This document shows positions 13,060 to 41,308 of a stretch of 64,000 nucleotides of DNA, one piece after another. Made by a program: the position numbers and the translations under genes. Source of the DNA: Mesorhizobium sp. 131-2-1 (GTDB taxonomy: Bacteria > Pseudomonadota > Alphaproteobacteria > Rhizobiales > Rhizobiaceae). Location: the NCBI RefSeq assembly GCF_016756535.1, contig NZ_AP023248.1, positions 1 through 64,000 on the forward strand, given 5' to 3'. Below the pieces are notes generated by a model. That model was not told the DNA's origin. It saw only the letters and a list, made by a program, of their open reading frames with translations, and searched no databases. How positions within the stretch are numbered: position 1 is the first letter of the stretch; each line of letters opens with the position of its first letter.

Positions 13060-13674
13060 CTACAATGGAACTGACCGGCCAGCCAAACCCGCCGCCGTTT
13101 CGATCCAACCACCTATGTTTTGGCGACCGTTTTGCTTCGTGAAGTCGTAACGAATATAATGATTAGAGATTTCGACAACCGTGTCACTGGTCGGCGGTTT
13201 GAACCAGAGGTCGCCCGCCGAGACCGCCAGGGTATAGTCGTCATACTTTACCCATTTGCCGCTCTTCCATTCGGCGACGAAAATGCCACTCGACGTTTTG
13301 TAGAGCCCCACCTGCGCCAATGGATCCGCACCCTTGAGGCCGGCCTCGCCCGCGACGTTCTTGACGCCATCAACGTCAACCGTAAGCAGCCCATTCCCCT
13401 TCAGAATGCTACGAACAATCTCGTATCGGACCCATCGTCTCTGCCACGTGAGCCTTCCAGAAAGTACGCAGGTCACGGACGTGTTGTCCAAGCTATTACG
13501 TAAGAAATTCTTGAGCGCGGTGGGGCTCTCGTTCTTGGCGGCCTCGAACACGCTACTGTCGAAGAAGCCACGATCAATCTGATCTTGCGGACGGACAACC
13601 CAGCTGTTGCGCACGTTCCTTGCGCGCCACTTGTCTTCGTCATGATGGAATAAGAAGAACGTCCTCCGAGCCAT
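13060..13674 (-). CDS. TIR-like protein of the ThsB (DUF1863) type
   Basis: 204 residues. The N-terminus TFFLFHHDEDKWRARNVRNSWVV is the beta-A/helix region of MTH538/ThsB-like TIR domains. TSVTCVLSGRLTWQRRWVRYEI carries the likely catalytic Glu in the W-V-x-x-E-I context. The last 90 residues are an extra domain of unknown fold (VGLYKTSSGIFVAEWKSGKWVKYDDYTLAV). TIR proteins of this type make cyclic ADP-ribose signals from NAD+ in Thoeris. It lies 235 bases after the patatin gene on the same strand, so a shared operon is possible. No ThsA is adjacent. Confidence 0.8.
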   Translation of the reverse strand: MARRTFFLFHHDEDKWRARNVRNSWVVRPQDQIDRGFFDSSVFEAAKNESPTALKNFLRNSLDNTSVTCVLSGRLTWQRRWVRYEIVRSILKGNGLLTVDVDGVKNVAGEAGLKGADPLAQVGLYKTSSGIFVAEWKSGKWVKYDDYTLAVSAGDLWFKPPTSDTVVEISNHYIRYDFTKQNGRQNIGGWIETAAGLAGRSVPL

Positions 13675-13908
13675 CGGGCGCGCCGTCCTAAGCTGTCTTC
13701 CTGAACGCTTGCGCGTTGCCGGTCTTAGAAGAATTGAAATCGCGTGTTGCCTCGTTCAGGATCGTCGGCGCGGACTTATAAGTCGTCACGCGTCTTGCGC
13801 GGCTTCGGGCACGGTCTTCGGCAATTGTCGGCATGTCGGATCCATCCAGAATGAACGATGTCTAGCACAAGTATGTCCAGAAATACCGCGACTATGACTT
13901 GGATACTT

Positions 13909-16464
13909 TTAGCTCGGTGGGATCTCGCCGAAGTTTTCGGCGTACTTCTGCATCCACTCCTCCACTCCAATTGAGTTGGTCGCGAGGTCCCCAATGATGG
14001 CTCTCATGAATAGCTTGTCGCCGATGTGCTCTCCCAATAATCGATATGCCTCGAATTGAGTTTCAGAAAAGAATTGGTCGACGGTCGAGTGGTGCGGAAA
14101 CGACGGCTCGTCTAAGCGATATCTCCTCAGAAACTCCCCCTCGTTCCCTGTAAGCGAGAGTTTCACGTAAAGCAGATAGCCGATTTCCCAAGGCTCGATG
14201 GCGTCTCCGGTAGGGTAGCGAATTCGGCAGAACCGGAAGTGTGAGCGACTGAACCCGGTATCGAGAAGTCGAATCTCGTCAAGTTCGGCGTCGATCATGA
14301 TCCCCATGTCGATATAGGCAAGCCGCTGAAGGTTGGTGAGTGCATGGAATGTCATTTTGGGGTCGGCCTCACCGTCGACCGCGACAATGTATCGGCAACG
14401 TCGACGCAATAGCTCGTAAACACCCAGGTTCTCGATATGGCCGCCATCGGAGATGTTGACGTAGGGGAGTCGCTCACTGGCCGTCGCCATGAACTCGCGG
14501 AACAGATACTGGATGCCGGGATCCCGCCGCCAGCGCCCCCAAGTCGCCGCCGCCTTGTCGTTGCCCGCTATCCCGGGCTTTCTCAGCCAGGCATTGAGGC
14601 GCATGTTGAAAAGTGTCAGCCAGAAGCTCCCCTGCTTCGTGGTCCGCAGCCCCATCTGAGGAGAGACGGCCGCACCCGACAGAGCCATGGCCGCCGCGAG
14701 GTCAAGCTTGGGATTTAGGTCCTCCCAGGCTTTGGTCTCTTGATACCCCACGAGATTACTGCCGGTCATCAGTGGCGTGAATGTAAACACGTCGGAAAGA
14801 CGGCCTCGCATTTTGGGGTCGTCGGATCCTGGCGCATTGAGCGCGCAATTAATGATCGGATAAAAGGATAGATCCGGCTCGAACTCGCTCAACTTGGGCG
14901 AAACATTGGTCCCGCCTGTATGTATGAACGCGGTCGCCAGCTTCGAGCGATAGTATCGATAAAGCGAGGTTTCATTCACATCGACAAAGCACCAAAGAAG
15001 GCCAATGGCAACGGCCATGATTGCGAGAACGAGAAGTGTTGTTGTAAGGTCTTGACCCTCAAATGTTACGTAGAAGGCGTGCTCGGCAAGCAGGAGAAAG
15101 GCACCGGTAACTACGGGAATGACCATTGATCGCGCCCGCGCGAACACCGCGAATATTGATCCCAGGACAGCGATGGCAGTCGCGTTCAAGAGAAGCATCG
15201 CAAACAATGGACCTATTTCAGCAACGAGCGCGAAATTTCCGGTAAGACGCGTGATGCCGACGTGGAAGGCTCCGAAGGCGATCCAAATCAGCGGAAAACA
15301 AAATAGGAATCCAAGACTTAGATGCCAGACTGTCAGTTCGTTCAGTTGCAGCCGTTCTTGCCGGGCGACGTTGCTCAGAAGGACCAAGGCCACGATCGGA
15401 CATACCCATCCCAGCCATGTCGGCACACCGAAAAGCTGTAGGCCCGTTCGGCCAACTAATTCGACGGCCGCGATAAAGGCTATCACACTGAGTGCAAGGA
15501 CTGCGTTCACGAACACGCCGTACATTGAGCGCATTACTAGGAGCAATCGCTCGATGAAACCCGCGGAAAGGAAGCTTGCCCGTTGTCTGACGCGTGCCAA
15601 ATGGTCGGATTCTCGTTCCGTCCGTTTGAAAGGCTCTTGATCGGATAGCAGCCCAAACCCTTCGGCTGGGTTGGAAGTACCGAGCAGTGAAGTAAGGAAG
15701 CACCCTGTGTAACCGCCGCCGGATACCGTCGATAGATAATCGAACTGTGGCAAGAGGTTCTTGCGTGAAAGCGCGGCGAGGACCCCAAGCGAGAAGGTGG
15801 CACTCCGTATTCCGCCCCCGGACAGTGCGATTCCAGCTGCCCAGTCTCCATGAGACACCCCATATCGGTCCCTCCGGCGCTGGATCGCCGTTCTCTCATG
15901 ATCGCCATAGGTTTCATGGCCACCGGCTGGTCGCCATTCAGCTTCCCTTTGGGGAGGTTCGTCCGCCCCAAGAATCGCGGATCGGCTTGGATCGTAGGAC
16001 GCGGTCGTTCCCGTGAGCAGTGCAAGCGCGCGCTCGAGTACACGCAGGCTGTTCTGAATCTGGTATAGTTCGGCGCGAAACGCATCGCTGGAGTCGAGTG
16101 CGTCTAGCACGCCGCTTTGGCTTAACGGATGCCATTTCGCTGTGAACGGCCTAACCTCCACGTTCAGGGTATGCCAAACGAGGATTTCGAAAGTGCCACA
16201 TCCGACATTGTTTGCCGTGATCGCTCGCGCTTTGCCAAACAGCTCGGCCACGCTTTCAAGCGCGCGTTTCTCGGTTCCACTGCCATACGCGAGGCGGGCC
16301 GTGGCGATACGGGAAATTAGCTCTACGCGAAACTGATGAGCGGCCGTTTGGTTGGCGGTGTCACTATTCCAACTGCTGTCGCCGAAAACGGACAGAAAAT
16401 TCGCCCCGAAAATATCGGTAGCAGATAGCTCCGCCAGTTTTGATCGAATCGTGTCGCTCGTCAT
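13909..16464 (-). CDS. Patatin-like phospholipase with central membrane domain
   Basis: 851 residues from ATG 16464 (AGGTGAAA ribosome site). The patatin core is split. The oxyanion loop ALSGGGIRSATFSLG (about residue 215) and the serine nucleophile in STVSGGGYTG (about residue 245) come first. About six transmembrane helices fill residues 310-510. The catalytic Asp in NISDGGHIENLGVYELL follows near residue 665. The N-terminal 200 residues and the C-terminus are of unknown fold. Patatins act as membrane-degrading effectors in several anti-phage systems. In a TIR-rich island, on the strand of a TIR-Nmad2 pair and 115 bases behind it, this is a strong effector candidate. Confidence 0.88.
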   Translation of the reverse strand: MTSDTIRSKLAELSATDIFGANFLSVFGDSSWNSDTANQTAAHQFRVELISRIATARLAYGSGTEKRALESVAELFGKARAITANNVGCGTFEILVWHTLNVEVRPFTAKWHPLSQSGVLDALDSSDAFRAELYQIQNSLRVLERALALLTGTTASYDPSRSAILGADEPPQREAEWRPAGGHETYGDHERTAIQRRRDRYGVSHGDWAAGIALSGGGIRSATFSLGVLAALSRKNLLPQFDYLSTVSGGGYTGCFLTSLLGTSNPAEGFGLLSDQEPFKRTERESDHLARVRQRASFLSAGFIERLLLVMRSMYGVFVNAVLALSVIAFIAAVELVGRTGLQLFGVPTWLGWVCPIVALVLLSNVARQERLQLNELTVWHLSLGFLFCFPLIWIAFGAFHVGITRLTGNFALVAEIGPLFAMLLLNATAIAVLGSIFAVFARARSMVIPVVTGAFLLLAEHAFYVTFEGQDLTTTLLVLAIMAVAIGLLWCFVDVNETSLYRYYRSKLATAFIHTGGTNVSPKLSEFEPDLSFYPIINCALNAPGSDDPKMRGRLSDVFTFTPLMTGSNLVGYQETKAWEDLNPKLDLAAAMALSGAAVSPQMGLRTTKQGSFWLTLFNMRLNAWLRKPGIAGNDKAAATWGRWRRDPGIQYLFREFMATASERLPYVNISDGGHIENLGVYELLRRRCRYIVAVDGEADPKMTFHALTNLQRLAYIDMGIMIDAELDEIRLLDTGFSRSHFRFCRIRYPTGDAIEPWEIGYLLYVKLSLTGNEGEFLRRYRLDEPSFPHHSTVDQFFSETQFEAYRLLGEHIGDKLFMRAIIGDLATNSIGVEEWMQKYAENFGEIPPS

Positions 16465-16578
16465 TTTCACCTGCCCGATCATCATCGGCCACAAAGCCAA
16501 TTAAAAGCTGCAGTCCCGCGGGCTGCGTAGCGTGGATGCCTCGTGCCATCGCCCGCAACTGCCTTGTCTCGGCAGCGC

Positions 16579-17220
16579 CTATTCGAAAATCTTGTCGTCA
16601 CTGACCGAATAACGGGCCGCGCTTTGCTTGAATTGAAAGGGATCATCGACGACCCGGTTCAGGTAAGCGGATTGGCTAGTTGTAAGCCAGTTGAGGAGCC
16701 CCTCACACTCATGGTTCAGATAGACTCGATGTCCCCTCAGGTTAGTGTATCGAATCTCCTCAAGGATTGCTTTAGGAACCTCGGGCGCGGACCTACCGAA
16801 ATAGAAGAATTTCTCCGATATCAGAACCCGGTCGGCTCCAGTGTCCGTGCCAATATTGTGAAGATCTGGTGATCCGTTCGGCCGGCTATGATGTGAGTCA
16901 AGTTGCCTCCAGTCGCCGTCCTCTTGGTGGTATATATTGTCGCCGAGCATCATTACTCGACTGCCGTTGCGGACAGGTCGTTTGTCCCGAAACCTCGGGT
17001 CTGCCCAGTATTCATTGAATGACATGGCTCCGGTGACCTGCATCGCAAAAATGCAGCGTCCCACCGCATCGAGTTTCGCGCCGCCCATCCCGATTACCCA
17101 GTCACCAATTTTTGCCTTGCGTCTCACAACTGGCTTACAGGTCGCGAGCGTGCAGACGCCATGAAAAGGATTTGGGGCGAAACCGAAGTCGCGCGCCACA
17201 ACATACATGTAGACCGCCAT
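16579..17220 (-). CDS. Nmad2 (nucleotide modification associated domain 2) protein, copy A
   Basis: 213 residues. GFAPNPFHGVCTLATCKPVVRRKAKIGDWVIGMG (about residues 12-46) and LGDNIY (about residue 92) are the hallmarks of Nmad2, a family named by Aravind and colleagues from its association with DNA-base modification operons; its biochemistry is not established. Conserved Cys, Asp and His residues suggest a nucleotide-binding or catalytic pocket. It starts 3 bases after the TIR gene stop. The copy at 18959-19579 is a clear paralogue in the mirror-image cassette. Confidence 0.85.
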   Translation of the reverse strand: MAVYMYVVARDFGFAPNPFHGVCTLATCKPVVRRKAKIGDWVIGMGGAKLDAVGRCIFAMQVTGAMSFNEYWADPRFRDKRPVRNGSRVMMLGDNIYHQEDGDWRQLDSHHSRPNGSPDLHNIGTDTGADRVLISEKFFYFGRSAPEVPKAILEEIRYTNLRGHRVYLNHECEGLLNWLTTSQSAYLNRVVDDPFQFKQSAARYSVSDDKIFE

Positions 17221-17223
17221 GGA

Positions 17224-17712
17224 TCAGCATCGCGAAGTGGAGGACGTGTGGACAGGGGTACGCGAAGATCCGTCGGCGTCACGGAAATCTGGGTCAGCGC
17301 CCTCCACCGCGTCGATGATCGCGTCCGGATTCCAGTTTACGAGATCGCTACCATAGTCCTCGAAGGCCGGCGGTATATCCGCCTCCGTTCCCCCGCGGGT
17401 AAATACGCCAATGATACGCTTTCCGAGTTCGTGCGCTTTCCGAATCTCCCAGTTCACCCAAGGGCGCGCATGGGTTTCTTTTCCGATCAGGACGATGACG
17501 GTCGACGCCCAGGACATTTTCATCCTCAGAAGGCGCCTGATCGCATTGTCGCTGACCAGACCCTTATCCAGCCTCTCCTGGTTCGCTGGCTTCGCCCTGA
17601 TCGAGCTATTCCTGATCTCGTATCCCTTGCGGGCAAGCGACTCGGTTAGTTTCGTGACGTGTTCGTCATCGGCATGATGGTGACTAATAAAAACGTGGCG
17701 CCTTCCCGACAT
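17224..17712 (-). CDS. TIR-domain protein paired with Nmad2, copy A
   Basis: 162 residues from ATG 17712 (GGAGAAG ribosome site; the frame is open to 17748). HVFISHHHADDEHVTKLTESLARKGYEIR is the TIR beta-A/alpha-A. WASTVIVLIGKETHARPWVNWEIRKAHELGKRIIGVF contains the catalytic Glu in W-V-N-W-E-I. The closest relative in the window is the protein at 18477-18962, which shares the same start, the ISH-H-DD motif and the WVNWEI motif. It is first in a minus-strand operon with Nmad2 copy A and shares a 71-bp divergent promoter region with the plus-strand operon. Confidence 0.9.
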   Translation of the reverse strand: MSGRRHVFISHHHADDEHVTKLTESLARKGYEIRNSSIRAKPANQERLDKGLVSDNAIRRLLRMKMSWASTVIVLIGKETHARPWVNWEIRKAHELGKRIIGVFTRGGTEADIPPAFEDYGSDLVNWNPDAIIDAVEGADPDFRDADGSSRTPVHTSSTSRC

Positions 17713-17783
17713 TTCACTTCTCCGAATACTTGACGGAATGTATATCACTGGTTGAACTTCGGCGCGACTGCTTGGGGAGCCTC
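17713..17783. promoter_or_regulatory. Divergent promoter region of the two TIR-Nmad2 operons
   Basis: Only 71 bases separate the start of the minus-strand TIR gene from the start of the plus-strand kinase gene, so promoters for both operons must lie here or overlap the coding ends. A TTGAC near 17728 and a TATATC near 17742 are visible, but spacing to a standard promoter is poor. Co-regulation of both arms is likely. Confidence 0.5.
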
Positions 17784-18437
17784 ATGGCGGGAAATCTGTT
17801 TATATTCGAAGGGCCGGATGGCGTTGGAAAAACGACGATCGTACAGGCACTCAAAGATAAGTTGTCGAGCGACCGTTTCGAATTTTTGAGCTTTCCTGGC
17901 CGTGAGGAAGGAACGCTTGGTCACACCATCTACCGCATCCATCACAGCCCTGAAGACTTTGGCATCGGTGCGATGTCGGAACTCGCGCGTCAAGCCCTCC
18001 ACGTAGCGGCGCATATTGATGTTATCGAGACCCGCATTAGACCGTGGTTGGCAGAAGGAAAAAATGTGGTCCTCGACCGGTTTTGGTGGTCGACTGTCGT
18101 TTACGGAAGCGCCGGCGGCGGCGAGCATAAAGCCCTGATGGACCTTGTTGCGGCCGAACAGACCGTTTGGGGGGAAATCAAGCCGGCGATCGCGTTTCTC
18201 ATTGATCGTGACAGCCCAATCAATCGTAAGGAAGACCCAGTTTATTGGCAACAGCTTCGCTTAAGTTATGCTCGGCTCGCCGGTCATGAGAGCGGACGTT
18301 ACAAAGTTTGTACAATAAGCAATAGTGGCAGGGTCGCCGACTCGATTGCATTCGTAGAAGGTGAGATTGCAGAGGTCCGCAGCCGCAACCCGGATAAACG
18401 AATGCAAAAACGCGCGTACAGAGATCCCGGGCATTGA
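17784..18437 (+). CDS. Thymidylate-kinase-like P-loop nucleotide kinase
   Basis: 217 residues from ATG 17784 (GGGGAG ribosome site). Walker A EGPDGVGKTT (residues 9-18), the DRFWWST motif at about residue 96 that matches the dTMP-kinase DRY..S element, and a LID-like DRDSPINRKEDPVYW. The chromosomal tmk would serve replication, so this copy probably phosphorylates a nucleotide for the linked genes, perhaps a modified or damaged thymidylate. It heads the right-arm operon and ends 39 bases before the TIR ATG. Confidence 0.82.
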   Translation: MAGNLFIFEGPDGVGKTTIVQALKDKLSSDRFEFLSFPGREEGTLGHTIYRIHHSPEDFGIGAMSELARQALHVAAHIDVIETRIRPWLAEGKNVVLDRFWWSTVVYGSAGGGEHKALMDLVAAEQTVWGEIKPAIAFLIDRDSPINRKEDPVYWQQLRLSYARLAGHESGRYKVCTISNSGRVADSIAFVEGEIAEVRSRNPDKRMQKRAYRDPGH

Positions 18438-18476
18438 TTTCTTGTCTGGTTACCCTGCGGCAATGTGAGTAGCGAA

Positions 18477-18962
18477 ATGGCCAATTTCATAAAGAACGTC
18501 TTTATCAGCCACATCCATGAAGATGATCATGGCTTGGCAAAGCTGAAAGAAATCCTCGCCAATCATAACCTATCCATCCGAGATTCCTCGATAAACTCGA
18601 GCAATCCAAACAAAGCGAAAAGCCCAGAATATATCAAGTCCTCTGTCCTCGCGCCGCAGATCCAGTGGGCCAGCACCTTGATCGTCTACGTCACGGCCGA
18701 TACCCGTCACAGTGAATGGGTGAATTGGGAAATTGAGTATGCGGCAAAGTTGGGCAAGCGGATCGTTGGCGTTTGGGGTGAGGGAGAACAAGGTTGCGAA
18801 TTACCGGATGCCCTCAAGGATTATCACGACGCGATGGTCGGCTGGCACGGTAATTCCATAGTTGAGGCGATTGTTGAGGACCAGGACAAAACAGAAATGC
18901 CAAACGGCGATGCCGCTCCGATCCTTCCGATCGTCCGACACCCCTGCGGGGCACGGGGATGA
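18477..18962 (+). CDS. TIR-domain protein paired with Nmad2, copy B
   Basis: 161 residues from ATG 18477; an in-frame GTG at 18465 is the alternative. NVFISHIHEDDHGLAKLKEILANHNLSIRDSS and WASTLIVYVTADTRHSEWVNWEIEYAAKLGKRIVGVWGE show a full TIR fold with the catalytic Glu in WVNWEI. It is paralogous to copy A at 17224-17712. Its stop overlaps the Nmad2 start (ATGA), so the pair is made together. The expected activity is NAD+ hydrolysis or cyclisation on phage sensing, as in Thoeris ThsB; the trigger is unknown. Confidence 0.9.
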   Translation: MANFIKNVFISHIHEDDHGLAKLKEILANHNLSIRDSSINSSNPNKAKSPEYIKSSVLAPQIQWASTLIVYVTADTRHSEWVNWEIEYAAKLGKRIVGVWGEGEQGCELPDALKDYHDAMVGWHGNSIVEAIVEDQDKTEMPNGDAAPILPIVRHPCGARG

Positions 18963-19579
18963 GCATTTACTCGTACATTGTTAGGTTCGACAGCGGGTTC
19001 GCTCCAAATCCATTTTATGGGCTTTGCTCTCTGGCTACGTGCAAGCATCCCATCCGGAAGCATGCGGAGATTGGAGACTGGGTTGTCGGATGCGGTAGCG
19101 CAGATCGGGCTGTTCGCCGTGGTGGCCATATTGTCCACGCGATGAGGATCACGGAGACGTTGACATTCGAGGAGTATGACGCCGATCCGCGCTTTAAATC
19201 AAAGAAGCCGATCCGTAATGGTAGCCGCAAGCAGAACGCCGGGGACAACATATATTTTCCAACGGCGCATGGTTGGTCGCAGCGTGACTCCTTTCATAGC
19301 AAGTCGGACGGCAGCCCAAACCCAAAGCATGTGGCGAACGACACTCAGGTCGACCGCGTGCTTCTGAGTGATGATTTCGTTTATTTTGGCGGTGAAGGTC
19401 CCGAATTTCCAGCCGACCTTCAGGACAAATACGGCAGACATATCTGTAAGGCAGGCATTGGCCGGTCGAAATTCAATGATAACGCCTTGGAGGAGAAGCT
19501 CGTCGCTTGGCTCGACTCGATCGGGCCTAGGGGCCTGCAGGGATCGCCATTTGAGTGGTTGAGCTTAAGAGAACGATGA
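18959..19579 (+). CDS. Nmad2 (nucleotide modification associated domain 2) protein, copy B
   Basis: 206 residues. Same landmarks as copy A: YSYIVRFDSGFAPNPF, GLCSLATCKHPIRKHAEIGDWVVGCGS, KPIRNGSRKQNAGDNIYF and VLLSDDFVYFGGEGP. Start and stop both overlap neighbours by 4 bases (ATGA), locking it between TIR and MazG-like genes. The high conservation of cysteine, Asp-Trp and GDNIY between two diverged copies suggests these residues are functional. A role in binding or altering an unusual nucleotide is inferred from the family name and the neighbours. Confidence 0.87.
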   Translation: MSIYSYIVRFDSGFAPNPFYGLCSLATCKHPIRKHAEIGDWVVGCGSADRAVRRGGHIVHAMRITETLTFEEYDADPRFKSKKPIRNGSRKQNAGDNIYFPTAHGWSQRDSFHSKSDGSPNPKHVANDTQVDRVLLSDDFVYFGGEGPEFPADLQDKYGRHICKAGIGRSKFNDNALEEKLVAWLDSIGPRGLQGSPFEWLSLRER

Positions 19580-20727
19580 ATTCGATGTCGAACGACCATC
19601 TCGGATTGAATGAGTATCAAAGCCTGGCATCCCGAAGTGACCGGACAAAGGGGAAGGGGAACGGGTTCGACCTCCCCGTCCTTGGCCTTGTCGGCGAAGT
19701 TGGTAGCCTTCTGAGCGAGGTGAAGAAGCGGCAGCGTGATAAGGCGGCGATCATCGGGTATGAGCAGACCGTCCTCGAGGAACTGGGCGATAGCCTATGG
19801 TATCTCGCCATAATCGCCGATCACGCGGATATAAGGCTGGCAACCTTGGACGATGCCGGAGTGGAAACAGATCTGCCGTTTGCCGTGCTGCAACCCCAAC
19901 ATGCCCTACCGCTGAACACGCCAAGCGCTCAGTTCGAAAAAACGCTTCTGCGCTTGGCCGCCGCGACTGGCGAGCTGGCGGCAGCCGTCGATGGATCCCA
20001 TGGCGACAAACCTCTCCTGCAGGCTCGCTTGGCGACAGTACTGCGGCACCTCGTTCAGGCCGCCAATGAATCGGAGGTACTTCTCGAGGCCGCCGCTCGC
20101 GCCAACCTTAAAAAGGCCGAGGATCGTTGGCCGCGCGAACGCACTTATCCCCCGCTGTTCGACGCTGAGTTTCCAGCGGATGAGCAACTACCGCGGGCGC
20201 TCGAAATCGACATTTACGAGCGGGATGCCAGCAATGACAAGCGCTACGTACTGCAGAGCTGCCGTGGCCTATTCATCGGCGATCGGCTGACCGACAACAT
20301 CATGCAACCCGACGACTATCGGTTCCACGATGTCTTTCACTATGCCTACGCCGCTGTGCTCGGCTGGTCACCGGTCACGCGAGCTCTCTTGAAAAGAAAG
20401 CGGAAAAGCAAATCGCGGGTCGATGAGGGCGAGGACGGCGCACGCGCGACCCTCATTGAGGAAGGAGTGGCCACCTATGTTTTCGGAATAGCCAAGGATT
20501 TCGACTTTTTCGCTGACCAGAACCCCGGAGATCTCAGCCTTAGCTTGCTCAAGAACGTCAGACAGTTCGCTCGCGGATATGAGGTTCACTCTTCTCCGCT
20601 GTGGCTGTGGGAGGACGCGATTCTTCAGGGGAACCATGCGTTTCGCTTCCTTCGAGAAAACCGTCGCGGTCGCGTCAAGCTTGATATAGAGAAGCGTTCG
20701 TTATCGATAGGGGAACTACCGCGATGA
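19576..20727 (+). CDS. MazG-like nucleotide pyrophosphohydrolase with C-terminal domain
   Basis: 383 residues. The N-terminal MazG-type domain shows GLVGEVGSLLSEVKKRQRDK (about 38-57) and VLEELGDSLWYLA (about 67-79), which provide the ExxE/ExxD magnesium ligands. A helical linker follows. From about residue 215 there is a second domain with RFHDVFHYAYAAVLGWSPVTRALLKRKRK and LIEEGVATYVFGIA, whose His-His-Glu pattern suggests another metal site and matches the MazG C-terminal domain type seen in conflict-system operons. It would hydrolyse NTPs or dNTPs, possibly the product of the linked kinase. The ATG at 19576 overlaps the Nmad2 stop. Confidence 0.82.
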   Translation: MNSMSNDHLGLNEYQSLASRSDRTKGKGNGFDLPVLGLVGEVGSLLSEVKKRQRDKAAIIGYEQTVLEELGDSLWYLAIIADHADIRLATLDDAGVETDLPFAVLQPQHALPLNTPSAQFEKTLLRLAAATGELAAAVDGSHGDKPLLQARLATVLRHLVQAANESEVLLEAAARANLKKAEDRWPRERTYPPLFDAEFPADEQLPRALEIDIYERDASNDKRYVLQSCRGLFIGDRLTDNIMQPDDYRFHDVFHYAYAAVLGWSPVTRALLKRKRKSKSRVDEGEDGARATLIEEGVATYVFGIAKDFDFFADQNPGDLSLSLLKNVRQFARGYEVHSSPLWLWEDAILQGNHAFRFLRENRRGRVKLDIEKRSLSIGELPR

Positions 20728-21392
20728 ACACCGCCCAGTTCGTTGAGACACTGGCCGACCTTTCATTTAAAGACGCATTCAATCCGTACGCTGATGCTTG
20801 TGGGGATTTCGATCGAGACGACGCCCCCGCCATCCGGCGCACAAACCTGAAACTCGTCCTCGACGCGGCAATTGAGTCGAAAGTGGACTCTATTTGGATC
20901 GCTCGGGACCTCGGTTATCGCGGCGGTCGTCGCACTGGTCTCGCGCTAACGGACGAAGCGCATCTAAATGATCATTCCACCCTCTACGGCAACCTGCCCC
21001 TTGCCCGCGCCACCAGGGGTCCTGCTATCTCCGAGCGAACGGCGACCGTGATCTGGCAAACCCTGAATCGTATTCAGCGCCCGGTCTTCCTATGGAACGT
21101 CTTTCCTTTGCATCCGCACGAACCCGGCGACCCTCAATCGAACCGCTGCCACACTCGAGCTGAACGCAGTGCCTGTCGTCCGCTTTTGGCCTGGCTGCTT
21201 GAGAGGCTTGTACCACGCGTGGTCGTAGCGGTCGGGCGGGACGCCCAATTCGCGTTGGCGGATCTCGGGATCGATGCGATGCAGGTCCGGCATCCGAGTT
21301 ATGGTGGCCAAAGCGACTTTATTTCCGGGATTGAGGGGCTCTATGGACTTCCCATCCTCTCAAAATCGCCCCAGCAGTTGGCAATGTTGTAG
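20724..21392 (+). CDS. Uracil-DNA-glycosylase-superfamily protein
   Basis: 222 residues. SIWIARDLGYRGGRRTGLALTDE (about 55-78) corresponds to the glycosylase motif 1, PVFLWNVFPLHPHEPG (about 133) to the Asn-containing strand, and VRHPSYGGQSDF (about 192) to the HPS minor-groove loop. These are intact, so base-excising activity is plausible. The usual EAPG start of motif 1 reads ARDLG, which may mark a changed substrate. It is the last gene of the right-arm operon, with ATGA coupling to the MazG-like gene. It may remove a base recognised or produced by the other members. Confidence 0.83.
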   Translation: MNTAQFVETLADLSFKDAFNPYADACGDFDRDDAPAIRRTNLKLVLDAAIESKVDSIWIARDLGYRGGRRTGLALTDEAHLNDHSTLYGNLPLARATRGPAISERTATVIWQTLNRIQRPVFLWNVFPLHPHEPGDPQSNRCHTRAERSACRPLLAWLLERLVPRVVVAVGRDAQFALADLGIDAMQVRHPSYGGQSDFISGIEGLYGLPILSKSPQQLAML

Positions 21393-21734: not shown

Positions 21735-21769
21735 CCGTGCTTGTAGGAAATGCTGAGGGGGCGGTGCGC

Positions 21770-22297
21770 ATGGCCACGGATTATGGCGGATGGCGGCGCG
21801 ACGTGCGCCGCGAGGTTTTCGTTAGTTATCACCATCGGGGAGACCAAGCCTATTACGACGCCTTCTCGCGCATGTTTCACGATTCCCTGCGGCTAATCAC
21901 CGACAACTCTCTCGAGCGGAAGGTGGACAGCAACGATCCCGGCTACATCATGCGTCGCATTCGGGAACACCATCTCCATGGCAGTTCGTGCACCATTGTC
22001 CTTTGTGGCGCCGACACCTGGCGGCGCAAGTTCGTGGACTGGGAAATCTATGCCTCGCTTGATCAGCAGATGGGACTTGTGGGTGTTAGGCTACCGACGC
22101 TTCTGCTGGCTGCGAACGGGGGCACGGCTAAGCCCCAGCGGCTTCAAGACAACATTGACAGTGCCTATGCGCCGTGGGTCCAATGGAATGACATCGCTAA
22201 CGACGCGGGTGCGGTTCAGCGCGCAGTCGAGACGGCGCTCGAAAGGCCTAGGTCGACTATAGCCAACACACGCCAGCGCATGGTGCGAAATCTGTGA
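21770..22297 (+). CDS. TIR-like protein of the ThsB type, first gene of the SLOG operon
   Basis: 175 residues from ATG 21770 (GAGGGGGCGG ribosome site; GTG 21737 is an alternative). EVFVSYHHRGDQAYYDAFSRMFHDSLRLI opens the domain. SSCTIVLCGADTWRRKFVDWEIYASLDQQMGLVGVRLP has the catalytic Glu in the F-V-D-W-E-I context, as in ThsB/DUF1863 proteins. The stop overlaps the GTG start of the next gene. With the second TIR gene and a SLOG-like gene it forms a three-gene operon related to Thoeris. Confidence 0.87.
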   Translation: MATDYGGWRRDVRREVFVSYHHRGDQAYYDAFSRMFHDSLRLITDNSLERKVDSNDPGYIMRRIREHHLHGSSCTIVLCGADTWRRKFVDWEIYASLDQQMGLVGVRLPTLLLAANGGTAKPQRLQDNIDSAYAPWVQWNDIANDAGAVQRAVETALERPRSTIANTRQRMVRNL

Positions 22298-31952: not shown

Positions 31953-32507
31953 ATGCCGGTTTTCGTTACCCAGAGGGAGTTACGCTCGTTCGCCGCGCAG
32001 AAGACTCTGAACGAGCAGCAAACCATCCGCAAAAGCGCATCAGAGCGGCCTCTAGAGGGTGCTACGTTCCTGTCGCACTCGACTAAGGACGATGACTTGG
32101 TGGTGGGTGCCACGATCGTGCTCGAGAACCATGGCGCAAAGGTCTACACTGACAAAGTTGACCCGGAGATGCCGCCTTACACCACAGAGAAAACAGCTTC
32201 ATTGCTGAAGACCCGCATTCGACAGACCAAGCGGTTCGTTCTTCTCGCCAGCAAGAACAGCAAAGAGAGCCGGTGGGTGCCCTGGGAACTCGGGGTCGCA
32301 GATGGGTACAAGGGTATTCCGAAAATCGCCCTTTTCCCGTCCGCGGACGATCCGAACGACATGACTTGGGCCTCCTGGGAATATCTCGGCCTGTATCCCC
32401 GCATCGTCTGGGGTGAGATCAAGGATCGGCCCAACCCACTTTGGATGGTATGGGACCACAAGACGAATACGGCAACGCCCCTACGGGGCTGGCTCGCCGG
32501 ACCCTGA
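31953..32507 (+). CDS. Stand-alone TIR-domain protein
   Basis: 184 residues. After a 35-residue helical lead (QRELRSFAAQKTLNEQQTIRKSA) the TIR domain reads GATFLSHSTKDDDLVVGATIVLENHGAKVYTDKVDPEMPP, then RIRQTKRFVLLASKNSKESRWVPWELGVADGYKGIPKIALFP, with the catalytic Glu in W-V-P-W-E-L. A GGGGGAAG ribosome site precedes ATG 31953. It has no partner gene on its strand: 178 bases separate it from the previous TIR gene and the next gene converges. It may act alone or with the neighbouring operon. Confidence 0.88.
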   Translation: MPVFVTQRELRSFAAQKTLNEQQTIRKSASERPLEGATFLSHSTKDDDLVVGATIVLENHGAKVYTDKVDPEMPPYTTEKTASLLKTRIRQTKRFVLLASKNSKESRWVPWELGVADGYKGIPKIALFPSADDPNDMTWASWEYLGLYPRIVWGEIKDRPNPLWMVWDHKTNTATPLRGWLAGP

Positions 32508-40297: not shown

Positions 40298-41308
40298 ATG
40301 GCCCGCAAGAACCTTTTAGAACTGTCCGAGGGTGCCGGCGAGCAGGCACCGCCTGACGCCACCAGGACCTCGCTCGTACGGCCCCTTATGGGCCTTGATC
40401 GACCATTGAAGCCGGGCAGGCCGGTGGGCGCCATCTCGCAATCGCTGGAGAACATAAACTCGCGGGCCCAGCGGGCAGAGGAAATCGAGCGCAAATTGTC
40501 GGAAGGGCAGGCGGTTGTTGAACTCGATCCAAGCCTTATCGATCAGTCTATCGTGGTCGATCGCCTGGGCGTCACCGACGAAAGACGAGCGGCCCTCGTC
40601 GATCAGATACGCGAGCACGGACAGCAGGTGCCCATCCTGGTGCGGCCGCATCCAGATGACAGCGCTCGCTACCAAGTCGCCTACGGACACCGCCGATTGG
40701 CTGCAGTCCGGCAACTCGGCCGGATGGTGCGCGCGGTCGTCAGGGAACTGACCGACGAGCAGCTCGTCGTCAGCCAAGGCCAGGAAAACAACAGTCGCAG
40801 CGACCTTTCCTACATCGAACGGTGCTATTTCGCAGCAAAGCTGGAAGCCAAGGGTTTCTCGCGCGACATCATCATGGCCTCGCTTGGGGTCGACAAGGCA
40901 GCGCTGTCAAAGATGATTGCGCTGGTCGCGCGCCTGCCGGCGGAGATCATCGAGGCCATCGGCACCGCTGAATCGTTCGGTCGCCAAAGATGGGCCGAGC
41001 TCGCCGATCTGCTCGAGGATGGGGCCAAGCGCGCCAGCGCAATGAAGGCAATTCAGGATCCCGAATTCGCGGCACTCTTCAGCGACGAGCGCTTCCAGTC
41101 AGTTTACGACATGGTCAAGATTCCGGCAAAAAAGCCCGACCGGACGCTATGGACAGCACCCAACGGTTCTCGCCTGGTCAGCATCAGCGACAGCGAATCC
41201 AAGACGACCTTCGCCTTCGATAATCGTATCGAACCGGAATTCGCCAACTTCGTTCGGGAGCGCTTGCAAGCGCTCTATGACGAGTTCCGTCAAAAGATAA
41301 CGGACTAA
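40298..41308 (+). CDS. repB: RepB, ParB-type centromere-binding protein of repABC
   Basis: 336 residues. The RepB N-terminus is followed by the ParB nuclease-like domain (IREHGQQVPILVRPHPDDSARYQVAYGHRRLAAVRQLG), box II SQGQENNSRSDLSYIERCYFAAKLEAKGFSRD and the helix-turn-helix IIMASLGVDKAALSKMIALVARLP. The C-terminus dimerises. It should bind the six palindromes at 37.6-38.8 kb. Only 2 bases separate it from repA, so they are co-translated. Confidence 0.95.
   Translation: MARKNLLELSEGAGEQAPPDATRTSLVRPLMGLDRPLKPGRPVGAISQSLENINSRAQRAEEIERKLSEGQAVVELDPSLIDQSIVVDRLGVTDERRAALVDQIREHGQQVPILVRPHPDDSARYQVAYGHRRLAAVRQLGRMVRAVVRELTDEQLVVSQGQENNSRSDLSYIERCYFAAKLEAKGFSRDIIMASLGVDKAALSKMIALVARLPAEIIEAIGTAESFGRQRWAELADLLEDGAKRASAMKAIQDPEFAALFSDERFQSVYDMVKIPAKKPDRTLWTAPNGSRLVSISDSESKTTFAFDNRIEPEFANFVRERLQALYDEFRQKITD

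What the first reader, a model, noticed from the sequence alone, without database searches (positions are those of the whole stretch)
13060..21392. Two-armed TIR-Nmad2 locus with nucleotide-metabolism enzymes: candidate new defence system
A 71-bp divergent promoter region separates two operons that each carry a paralogous TIR-Nmad2 pair. The right arm adds a dTMP-kinase-like, a MazG-like and a UDG-like enzyme, with ATGA overlaps linking TIR, Nmad2, MazG and UDG. The left arm adds a membrane patatin phospholipase and a ThsB-like TIR. Seen directly: gene order, overlaps, and the catalytic Glu in all three TIR domains. Inference: the kinase, MazG and UDG set makes, clears or removes an unusual nucleotide. 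Nmad2 binds or reads it, TIR makes a second messenger, and patatin is a membrane-attacking effector.
Basis: partly seen in the sequence, partly recalled or inferred. Interest (0 to 1): 0.92.

Follow-up and report, generated by a model that had tools for sequence, protein, structure and literature searches.

The report
Mobile TIR locus with nucleotide enzymes
A twelve-gene bacterial locus combines NAD-cleaving immune-type proteins with a predicted modified-base reader and uracil-type nucleotide enzymes; its four-gene heart recurs across many bacteria on mobile DNA, so it is very probably an untested defence system against viruses.

Summary
The right arm is a real, recurrent operon: TIR-Nmad2-MazG_C-UDG is complete in 64 of 80 Nmad2 loci, nearly all proteobacterial; none of ten profiles hits 29 hand-picked 20-kb control regions. 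The 80 are close relatives of the query, some near-copies: in an even draw of 398 phylum genomes only the own genome had both Nmad2 and MazG_C. The left arm belongs to a second TIR-Nmad2 subtype without MazG/UDG. The predicted Nmad2 structure resembles YTH/ASCH-type readers, with modest scores. MazG has a dUTPase-like fold, but one metal-binding Glu is lost in 72 of 72 sequences. Nmad2's partners share a C-terminal basic-Cys tail, kept even by some without the TIR Glu. Effectors around the core swap: TIR+SLOG, patatin-SLOG, ThsA. Most likely a mobile Thoeris-like system triggered by unusual nucleotides or DNA. Its domains were already predicted as defensive (PMC13092281). Function is inferred.

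The parts
13060..13674 (-). ThsB-type TIR protein (204 aa)
   Evidence: PF08937 75.6 bits; PADLOC ThsB 165 bits
13909..16500 (-). Patatin-like phospholipase with a hydrophobic middle (863 aa)
   Evidence: PF01734 35.8 bits, cut-off 27.7; hydrophobic stretches 319-510
16579..17220 (-). Nmad2, left arm (213 aa)
   Evidence: PF18753 242 bits; clade with MazG-less TIR-Nmad2 loci L186 and L194
17224..17712 (-). TIR partner of Nmad2, left arm; ends in ...SRC
   Evidence: PF08937 73.4 bits, PADLOC ThsB 173 bits, sequence
17713..17783 (.). 71-bp divergent intergenic region
   Evidence: Sequence; no promoter consensus match inside it
17784..18437 (+). Thymidylate-kinase-like P-loop protein
   Evidence: PF02223 63.4 bits; below the NCBIfam dTMP kinase cut-off (63.2 of 83.25); PADLOC candidate PDC-M51B 49 bits
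18465..18962 (+). TIR partner of Nmad2, core; tail ...VRHPCGARG
   Evidence: PF08937 84.3 bits, PADLOC ThsB 213.5 bits, sequence
18959..19579 (+). Nmad2, core: predicted PUA-like (YTH/ASCH-type) fold
   Evidence: PF18753 235.6 bits; model pLDDT 85.9; structure matches, modest
19576..20727 (+). MazG-like domain (dUTPase-like fold) + MazG_C
   Evidence: PF18722 256 bits, PF03819 29.7 bits; model pLDDT 89.3
20724..21392 (+). UDG-superfamily protein with conserved RDLGYRGGRRTGLALTD, WNVFPLHP and RHPSYGG
   Evidence: PF03167 36.5 bits; conservation with 65 relatives
21737..22297 (+).
   Evidence: PF08937 87.7 bits
22294..23511 (+).
   Evidence: PF13676 31.5 bits
23490..24389 (+).
   Evidence: PF18163 90.1 bits

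Best explanation
The locus is a mobile, modular, Thoeris-like anti-phage (or anti-plasmid) system. Its core is TIR-Nmad2-MazG_C-UDG. Nmad2 is a PUA-like reader that recognises an unusual pyrimidine base or nucleotide made during infection, and holds its TIR partner through the TIR's C-terminal basic-Cys tail. The UDG-superfamily enzyme excises that base from DNA, and the MazG/dUTPase-like protein binds or hydrolyses the matching dNTP; together they generate, limit or clear the trigger. When Nmad2 is engaged the TIR is released or assembled and uses NAD+ to make an ADP-ribose-type signal, which SLOG proteins sense. TIR5, patatin or, in relatives, SIR2-SLOG then deplete NAD+ or attack the membrane. 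Shown here: gene content, recurrence, mobility, conserved catalytic-type residues, predicted folds, the shared tail and effector swapping. Inferred: every activity, the trigger, the signal and the order of steps.
For: Four-gene core complete in 64 of 80 loci; 29 of 29 control regions empty. Of 52 core loci with at least 6 kb on both sides, 47 carry a SLOG-family protein, 43 a TIR5-type TIR, 8 a patatin-SLOG fusion, 4 a SIR2-STALD protein, 4 the membrane patatin, and 3 no accessory (counted anywhere in the fetched stretch). The SIR2-STALD protein of L043 matches ThsA over its length in PADLOC (514.8 bits). Nmad2 model resembles YTH and ASCH domains. UDG and MazG_C motifs are invariant or nearly so. 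The C-terminal tail occurs in 83 of 90 ORFs directly upstream of Nmad2 against 5 of 41 other TIRs (one fragment row dropped from 84 of 91). Near-identical islands in loci labelled as different classes: 99.9% over 12,935 bp and over 9,008 bp. Related loci carry 5-hmdU DNA kinase-type, dCTP deaminase-like and weakly thymidylate-synthase-like genes.
Confidence: 0.5

Rival explanations
1. Restriction by base excision: the UDG-like enzyme is the main effector and destroys phage DNA that carries a modified base, Nmad2 guides it, MazG clears the modified dNTP; the TIR and SLOG genes are a separate Thoeris-like system that travels with it.
For: Brig1, a glycosylase resembling uracil DNA glycosylases, is by itself an anti-phage effector (PMC11078745, passages read). 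A MazG-UDG pair occurs with no annotated TIR in plasmid locus L234, beside a dCTP deaminase and a C1 peptidase.
Against: A TIR sits directly upstream of Nmad2 in 72 of 80 loci and MazG directly downstream in 71 of 80; overlapping reading frames; the tail on Nmad2 partners; TIR-Nmad2 loci without MazG/UDG exist (L186, L194).
Confidence: 0.2
2. Self-modification: the enzymes put a modified pyrimidine into the cell's own DNA as a self mark, and the TIR arm kills cells in which the mark is lost or foreign DNA enters.
For: 5-hmdU DNA kinase-type, dCTP deaminase-like and weakly thymidylate-synthase-like genes near relatives are of the kind used in base modification.
Against: Pfam shows no base-modifying transferase among the 12 window genes; the kinase profile hits only L002 and L003 among the 80 loci.
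Confidence: 0.1
3. House-cleaning against damaged nucleotides, with the TIR genes as unrelated neighbours.
For: MazG, dUTPase and UDG families have house-cleaning members (established knowledge).
Against: Rare and patchy (6 and 4 of 398 genomes), mobile, tight TIR linkage.
Confidence: 0.05

Closest known systems
Thoeris (ThsA/ThsB)
   Same: ThsB-type TIRs, three of them with PADLOC ThsB scores of 165 to 214 bits; SLOG protein; 4 of 52 core relatives carry a SIR2-STALD protein, the one of L043 matching ThsA over its length.
   Different: No SIR2-SLOG or TM-macro effector among the 12 window genes; the core adds Nmad2, MazG_C and UDG.
DefensePredictor systems with NMAD, MazG-C and UDG (PMC13092281)
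   Same: Section 8 and the Fig. 6F legend name a nucleotide modification associated domain, MazG, MazG-C and UDG among eight predicted, unvalidated systems; the legend of Fig. 3C (validated systems) also explains the label NMAD, so some NMAD-bearing system was validated.
   Different: The figures are not held, so which NMAD and which gene order cannot be checked. TIR and SLOG do not occur as words in the held main text.
Brig1 (PMC11078745)
   Same: Glycosylase resembling uracil DNA glycosylases, in defence; a Brig1 relative lies near a ThsA-like SIR2 gene (passages).
   Different: Brig1 acts alone on alpha-glucosyl-hmC; homology of this UDG to Brig1 was not tested.
EVE/YTH/ASCH (PUA-like) readers of modification-dependent restriction (PMC12707154)
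   Same: Predicted Nmad2 fold; several such domains recognise modified bases (passages).
   Different: The ones described there feed nucleases; here the partner is a TIR.
Nucleotide-centric conflict systems, Burroughs et al. 2015 (PMC4678834)
   Same: Cited by PMC13092281 for predicting several of these domains as defensive.
   Different: Not held; I saw nothing of it, so the overlap is unknown to me.

Membership tests
Thoeris | TIR protein of the ThsB family | tested here: met
   PF08937 over the cut-off for four window proteins; PADLOC ThsB hits
Thoeris | ThsA effector (SIR2-SLOG or TM-macro) | tested here: not met
   None among the 12 genes by Pfam; a lone SLOG is present. Four of 52 core relatives have SIR2-STALD
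Thoeris | cADPR-isomer signal from NAD+ on infection | not testable with these tools
   Needs biochemistry
CBASS | CD-NTase | tested here: not met
   No nucleotidyltransferase family among the 12 genes
YTH/EVE/ASCH (PUA-like) fold, Nmad2 | PUA-like barrel | tested here: inconclusive
MazG / all-alpha NTP pyrophosphohydrolase | Fold and sequence relation | tested here: met
MazG / all-alpha NTP pyrophosphohydrolase | All four acidic metal ligands (role recalled; letters seen in the aligned iMazG and dCTPP1) | tested here: not met
   EVGE is EVG[G/S/A] in 72 of 72; the other acids are kept
UDG superfamily | UDG domain and conserved motifs | tested here: met
   PF03167 36.5 bits; motifs conserved with 65 relatives; only weak NCBIfam UDG matches, under their cut-offs
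Brig1 family | Homology to Brig1 and excision of alpha-glucosyl-hmC | not tested
   -

The most novel reading that the evidence does not exclude
The glycosylase makes the message. The UDG-like enzyme frees a modified base from phage DNA (or MazG frees the matching dNMP), and the tethered TIR uses that base in a base-exchange reaction with NAD+, giving a base-ADP-ribose messenger that only appears when phage DNA carries that base; SLOG effectors read it. Base exchange by a ThsB is published (PMC11204291, passages read); linking it to DNA base excision would be new.
Probability: 0.08. Interest if true: 0.9.

Novelty: new variant of a known kind. Interest (0 to 1): 0.64.

Why it matters
How TIR systems sense infection is largely open. 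A core that couples a TIR to a predicted modified-base reader, a glycosylase and a dUTPase-like protein would give a direct, testable trigger: the phage's unusual bases, which shield it from nuclease defences. The shared C-terminal tail, kept by partners without the TIR Glu, is a concrete handle on how sensor and TIR are joined. The core is widespread, mobile and, as far as I could see, untested.

Tried and rejected
Chance neighbourhood was rejected. A phage-borne modification operon was considered: tblastn of the Nmad2, UDG and MazG proteins found no match in annotated phages; in IMG/VR 7 Nmad2 loci, of which L090 carries the whole core. The IMG/VR scan with the MazG alignment kept 80 of 302 loci, all matching only within residues 2-97, that is the MazG part; it was not used. 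E. coli genomes gave no match to a relative's core DNA. The promoter and terminator scan found no clear excess over shuffles (7 against 6.1; 9 against 10.5). MazG_C was hardly covered by the structure rows and not predicted alone, so nothing is claimed about its fold. Paper searches for this gene set showed no paper whose listed title or abstract describes the operon; one search listed 20 of 606 and 15 of 86; searches used an unhyphenated enzyme name that probably misses the usual spelling, corrected. Corrections to my own counts: L062 and L063 failed my Glu pattern but have YVNWEI, so the Glu motif is in 78 of 90 partners, not 76; L077 counts as incomplete only because its Nmad2 frame is split.

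Full report
What is there. The window is the first 64 kb of a 285,993-bp contig of a two-contig, 7.1-Mb genome. The contig carries a RepB-family match at 40796-41287, but the large contig has one too, so a plasmid is only a guess. All nine genes of the finding are present with the stated domains. In the own genome, ThsB_TIR gives five matches: four of these TIR genes (not TIR5) and a weak one at 32067-32294. G+C falls to 0.54-0.56 over 14001-20000, against 0.575-0.69 in the other 2-kb blocks of the window.

Recurrence. A scan of genome contigs with an alignment of 31 Nmad2 proteins found 125 loci, of which the best 80 were kept. With my own profiles, a TIR lies directly upstream of Nmad2 in 72 of the 80, a MazG_C protein directly downstream in 71, a UDG follows in 66, and all four are present in 64. 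Of the 16 others, L019 and L066 are cut by contig ends; L064 is cut on the TIR side and has no UDG; L077 has all four parts but a split Nmad2 frame; L074 has an ORF between TIR and Nmad2; L073 has a short Nmad2 and no MazG; L062, L063 and L065 lack the UDG; L070 has TIR-Nmad2 with a 5-hmdU DNA kinase helical-domain gene; and six (L075, L076, L078-L081) have none of the partners. Hosts of the 64 are alpha-, beta- and gammaproteobacteria by record title, plus one Gemmatimonadetes MAG (L072). The loci are not independent: some are near-copies. Control: 29 regions of 20 kb, at hand-chosen round positions in 11 genomes, held no hit to any of the ten profiles. L002 and L003 have 11 of the window's 12 genes in the same order, lacking the outer TIR, with the kinase of L003 split in two ORFs.

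Limits of that count. The 80 were found with patterns from close relatives. In an even draw of 398 genomes of the phylum, 6 have Nmad2 and 4 have MazG_C, and only the own genome has both. Of the other five Nmad2 genomes, one (L186) has TIR-Nmad2 beside TIR5-SLOG without MazG/UDG, and four (L187-L190) have Nmad2 without any of these partners. Of the other three MazG_C genomes, L192 has MazG and a UDG in two pieces around an ORF that looks like a transposase by eye, and L191 and L193 have MazG without UDG, L193 beside a 5-hmdU DNA kinase helical domain. In a set of 101 genomes, the own and its relatives, 4 have Nmad2. So Nmad2 is a broader family, and TIR-Nmad2-MazG_C-UDG is one successful subtype.

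Two subtypes in one locus. In a tree of 88 Nmad2 proteins, all 57 rows labelled as core fall on one side of a 100/99 branch (67 rows), with the window's right-arm Nmad2. The left-arm Nmad2 groups with L002's left arm, L194 and L186 (100/97), and the latter two have TIR-Nmad2 with SLOG-TIR5 but no MazG/UDG. The root is only a midpoint and several rows are long branches. The window therefore seems to join two TIR-Nmad2 subtypes back to back (inference).

The tail. ORFs directly upstream of Nmad2 end in a short basic stretch and a Cys (KRHPC, KRNKC, SRC). My pattern found it in 84 of 91; one row is a fragment whose neighbour is Nmad2 itself, leaving 83 of 90 (near-copies included). Other TIRs in the 80 loci whose best profile is TIRc or TIR4 have it in 5 of 41. 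The TIR Glu motif is present in 78 of the 90 (76 by pattern, plus L062 and L063). L092, L094, L096, L195 and L196 (the last two with the same tail) keep the tail without the Glu motif, as does the partner in plasmid locus L237. L092, L094 and L195 match the TIR profile weakly, L094 and L195 only over the part that holds the tail; L096 does not match. The tail looks like a docking or control element specific to Nmad2 pairs (inference).

Effectors swap. Of the 64 core loci, 52 have at least 6 kb on both sides; anywhere in their fetched stretches, 47 carry a SLOG-family protein (28 SLOG cluster3, 14 SLOG cluster2, 8 patatin-SLOG, 4 SIR2-STALD; a locus can have several), 43 a TIR5-type protein, 33 a further TIR, 4 the membrane patatin, 3 no accessory, and 18 an integrase. 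Pfam confirms the types on examples. The SIR2-STALD protein of L043 matches ThsA over its length (514.8 bits). MazG-UDG also travels with other sets, by the records' annotation: dCTP deaminase, C1 peptidase and an I42-type protein near a Shedu gene (L234); metallophosphoesterase, AAA ATPase, SIR2 and, by my reading, Nmad2 (L237). In two genomes of the window's genus Nmad2-MazG-UDG recurs (L195, L196); L195 also has IrrE-type and papain-type peptidases, a dCTP deaminase-like protein and a Glu-less partner.

Mobility. Core islands are 99.92% identical over 12,935 bp between L006 (a MAG labelled Lysobacterales) and L010 (Eoetvoesiella), and 99.89% over 9,008 bp between L012 (Variovorax) and L014 (Stutzerimonas), which are different classes. 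In 72,556 plasmid records, 44 match the UDG and 15 the core Nmad2. In 50,697 phage records, none matches Nmad2, UDG or MazG.

Mechanism and probability. That the core serves defence against phages or other mobile DNA: about 0.8. That it is triggered through an unusual base or nucleotide: about 0.6. That SLOG proteins read a TIR product: about 0.55. The combined statement: 0.5. None of the activities is shown.

Prior art. PMC13092281 (outline, sections 5, 7, 8, legends and passages seen) lists a nucleotide modification associated domain, MazG, MazG-C and UDG among predicted, unvalidated systems, and reports a 5-hydroxymethyluracil kinase and a thymidylate synthase among validated ones; the legend of its validated systems (Fig. 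3C) also explains the label NMAD, so some NMAD-bearing system has been validated there. It credits Burroughs et al. 2015, which is not held. The idea that these domains defend is therefore not new. I file it as a new variant of TIR signalling defence, not as Thoeris, because no ThsA is present among the window's 12 genes.

Noticed in passing
window 32067-32294: A further, weak ThsB_TIR match (23.7 bits, just over the cut-off of 21.2).
   Followed up: no
window 40796-41287: RepB-family match on the 286-kb contig; the large contig has one too.
   Followed up: partly
L195 5319-12316 (G038): Same-genus locus with IrrE-type and papain-type peptidases, a dCTP deaminase-like protein and a Glu-less partner before Nmad2-MazG-UDG: looks like a protease-based sister system. 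L196 (G033) shows the same Nmad2-MazG-UDG end.
   Followed up: partly
L006 7237-20163 and L010: An almost identical 12.9-kb island in loci labelled as two different bacterial classes.
   Followed up: partly
L079 and L080: Archaeal Nmad2 genes sit next to Nmad3, with no TIR, MazG or UDG profile hit: a different Nmad2 context.
   Followed up: no
L091 7514-9642: In a viral-collection contig, TIR-Nmad2 is followed by a 5-hmdU DNA kinase helical-domain gene instead of MazG.
   Followed up: no
L002 1766-4831: A TIR-WD40 protein lies beside the relative of the window locus.
   Followed up: no
L194 9127-11419 (G001): Two convergent partner-Nmad2 pairs, one partner with the TIR Glu motif and one without it and without the tail.
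   Followed up: partly
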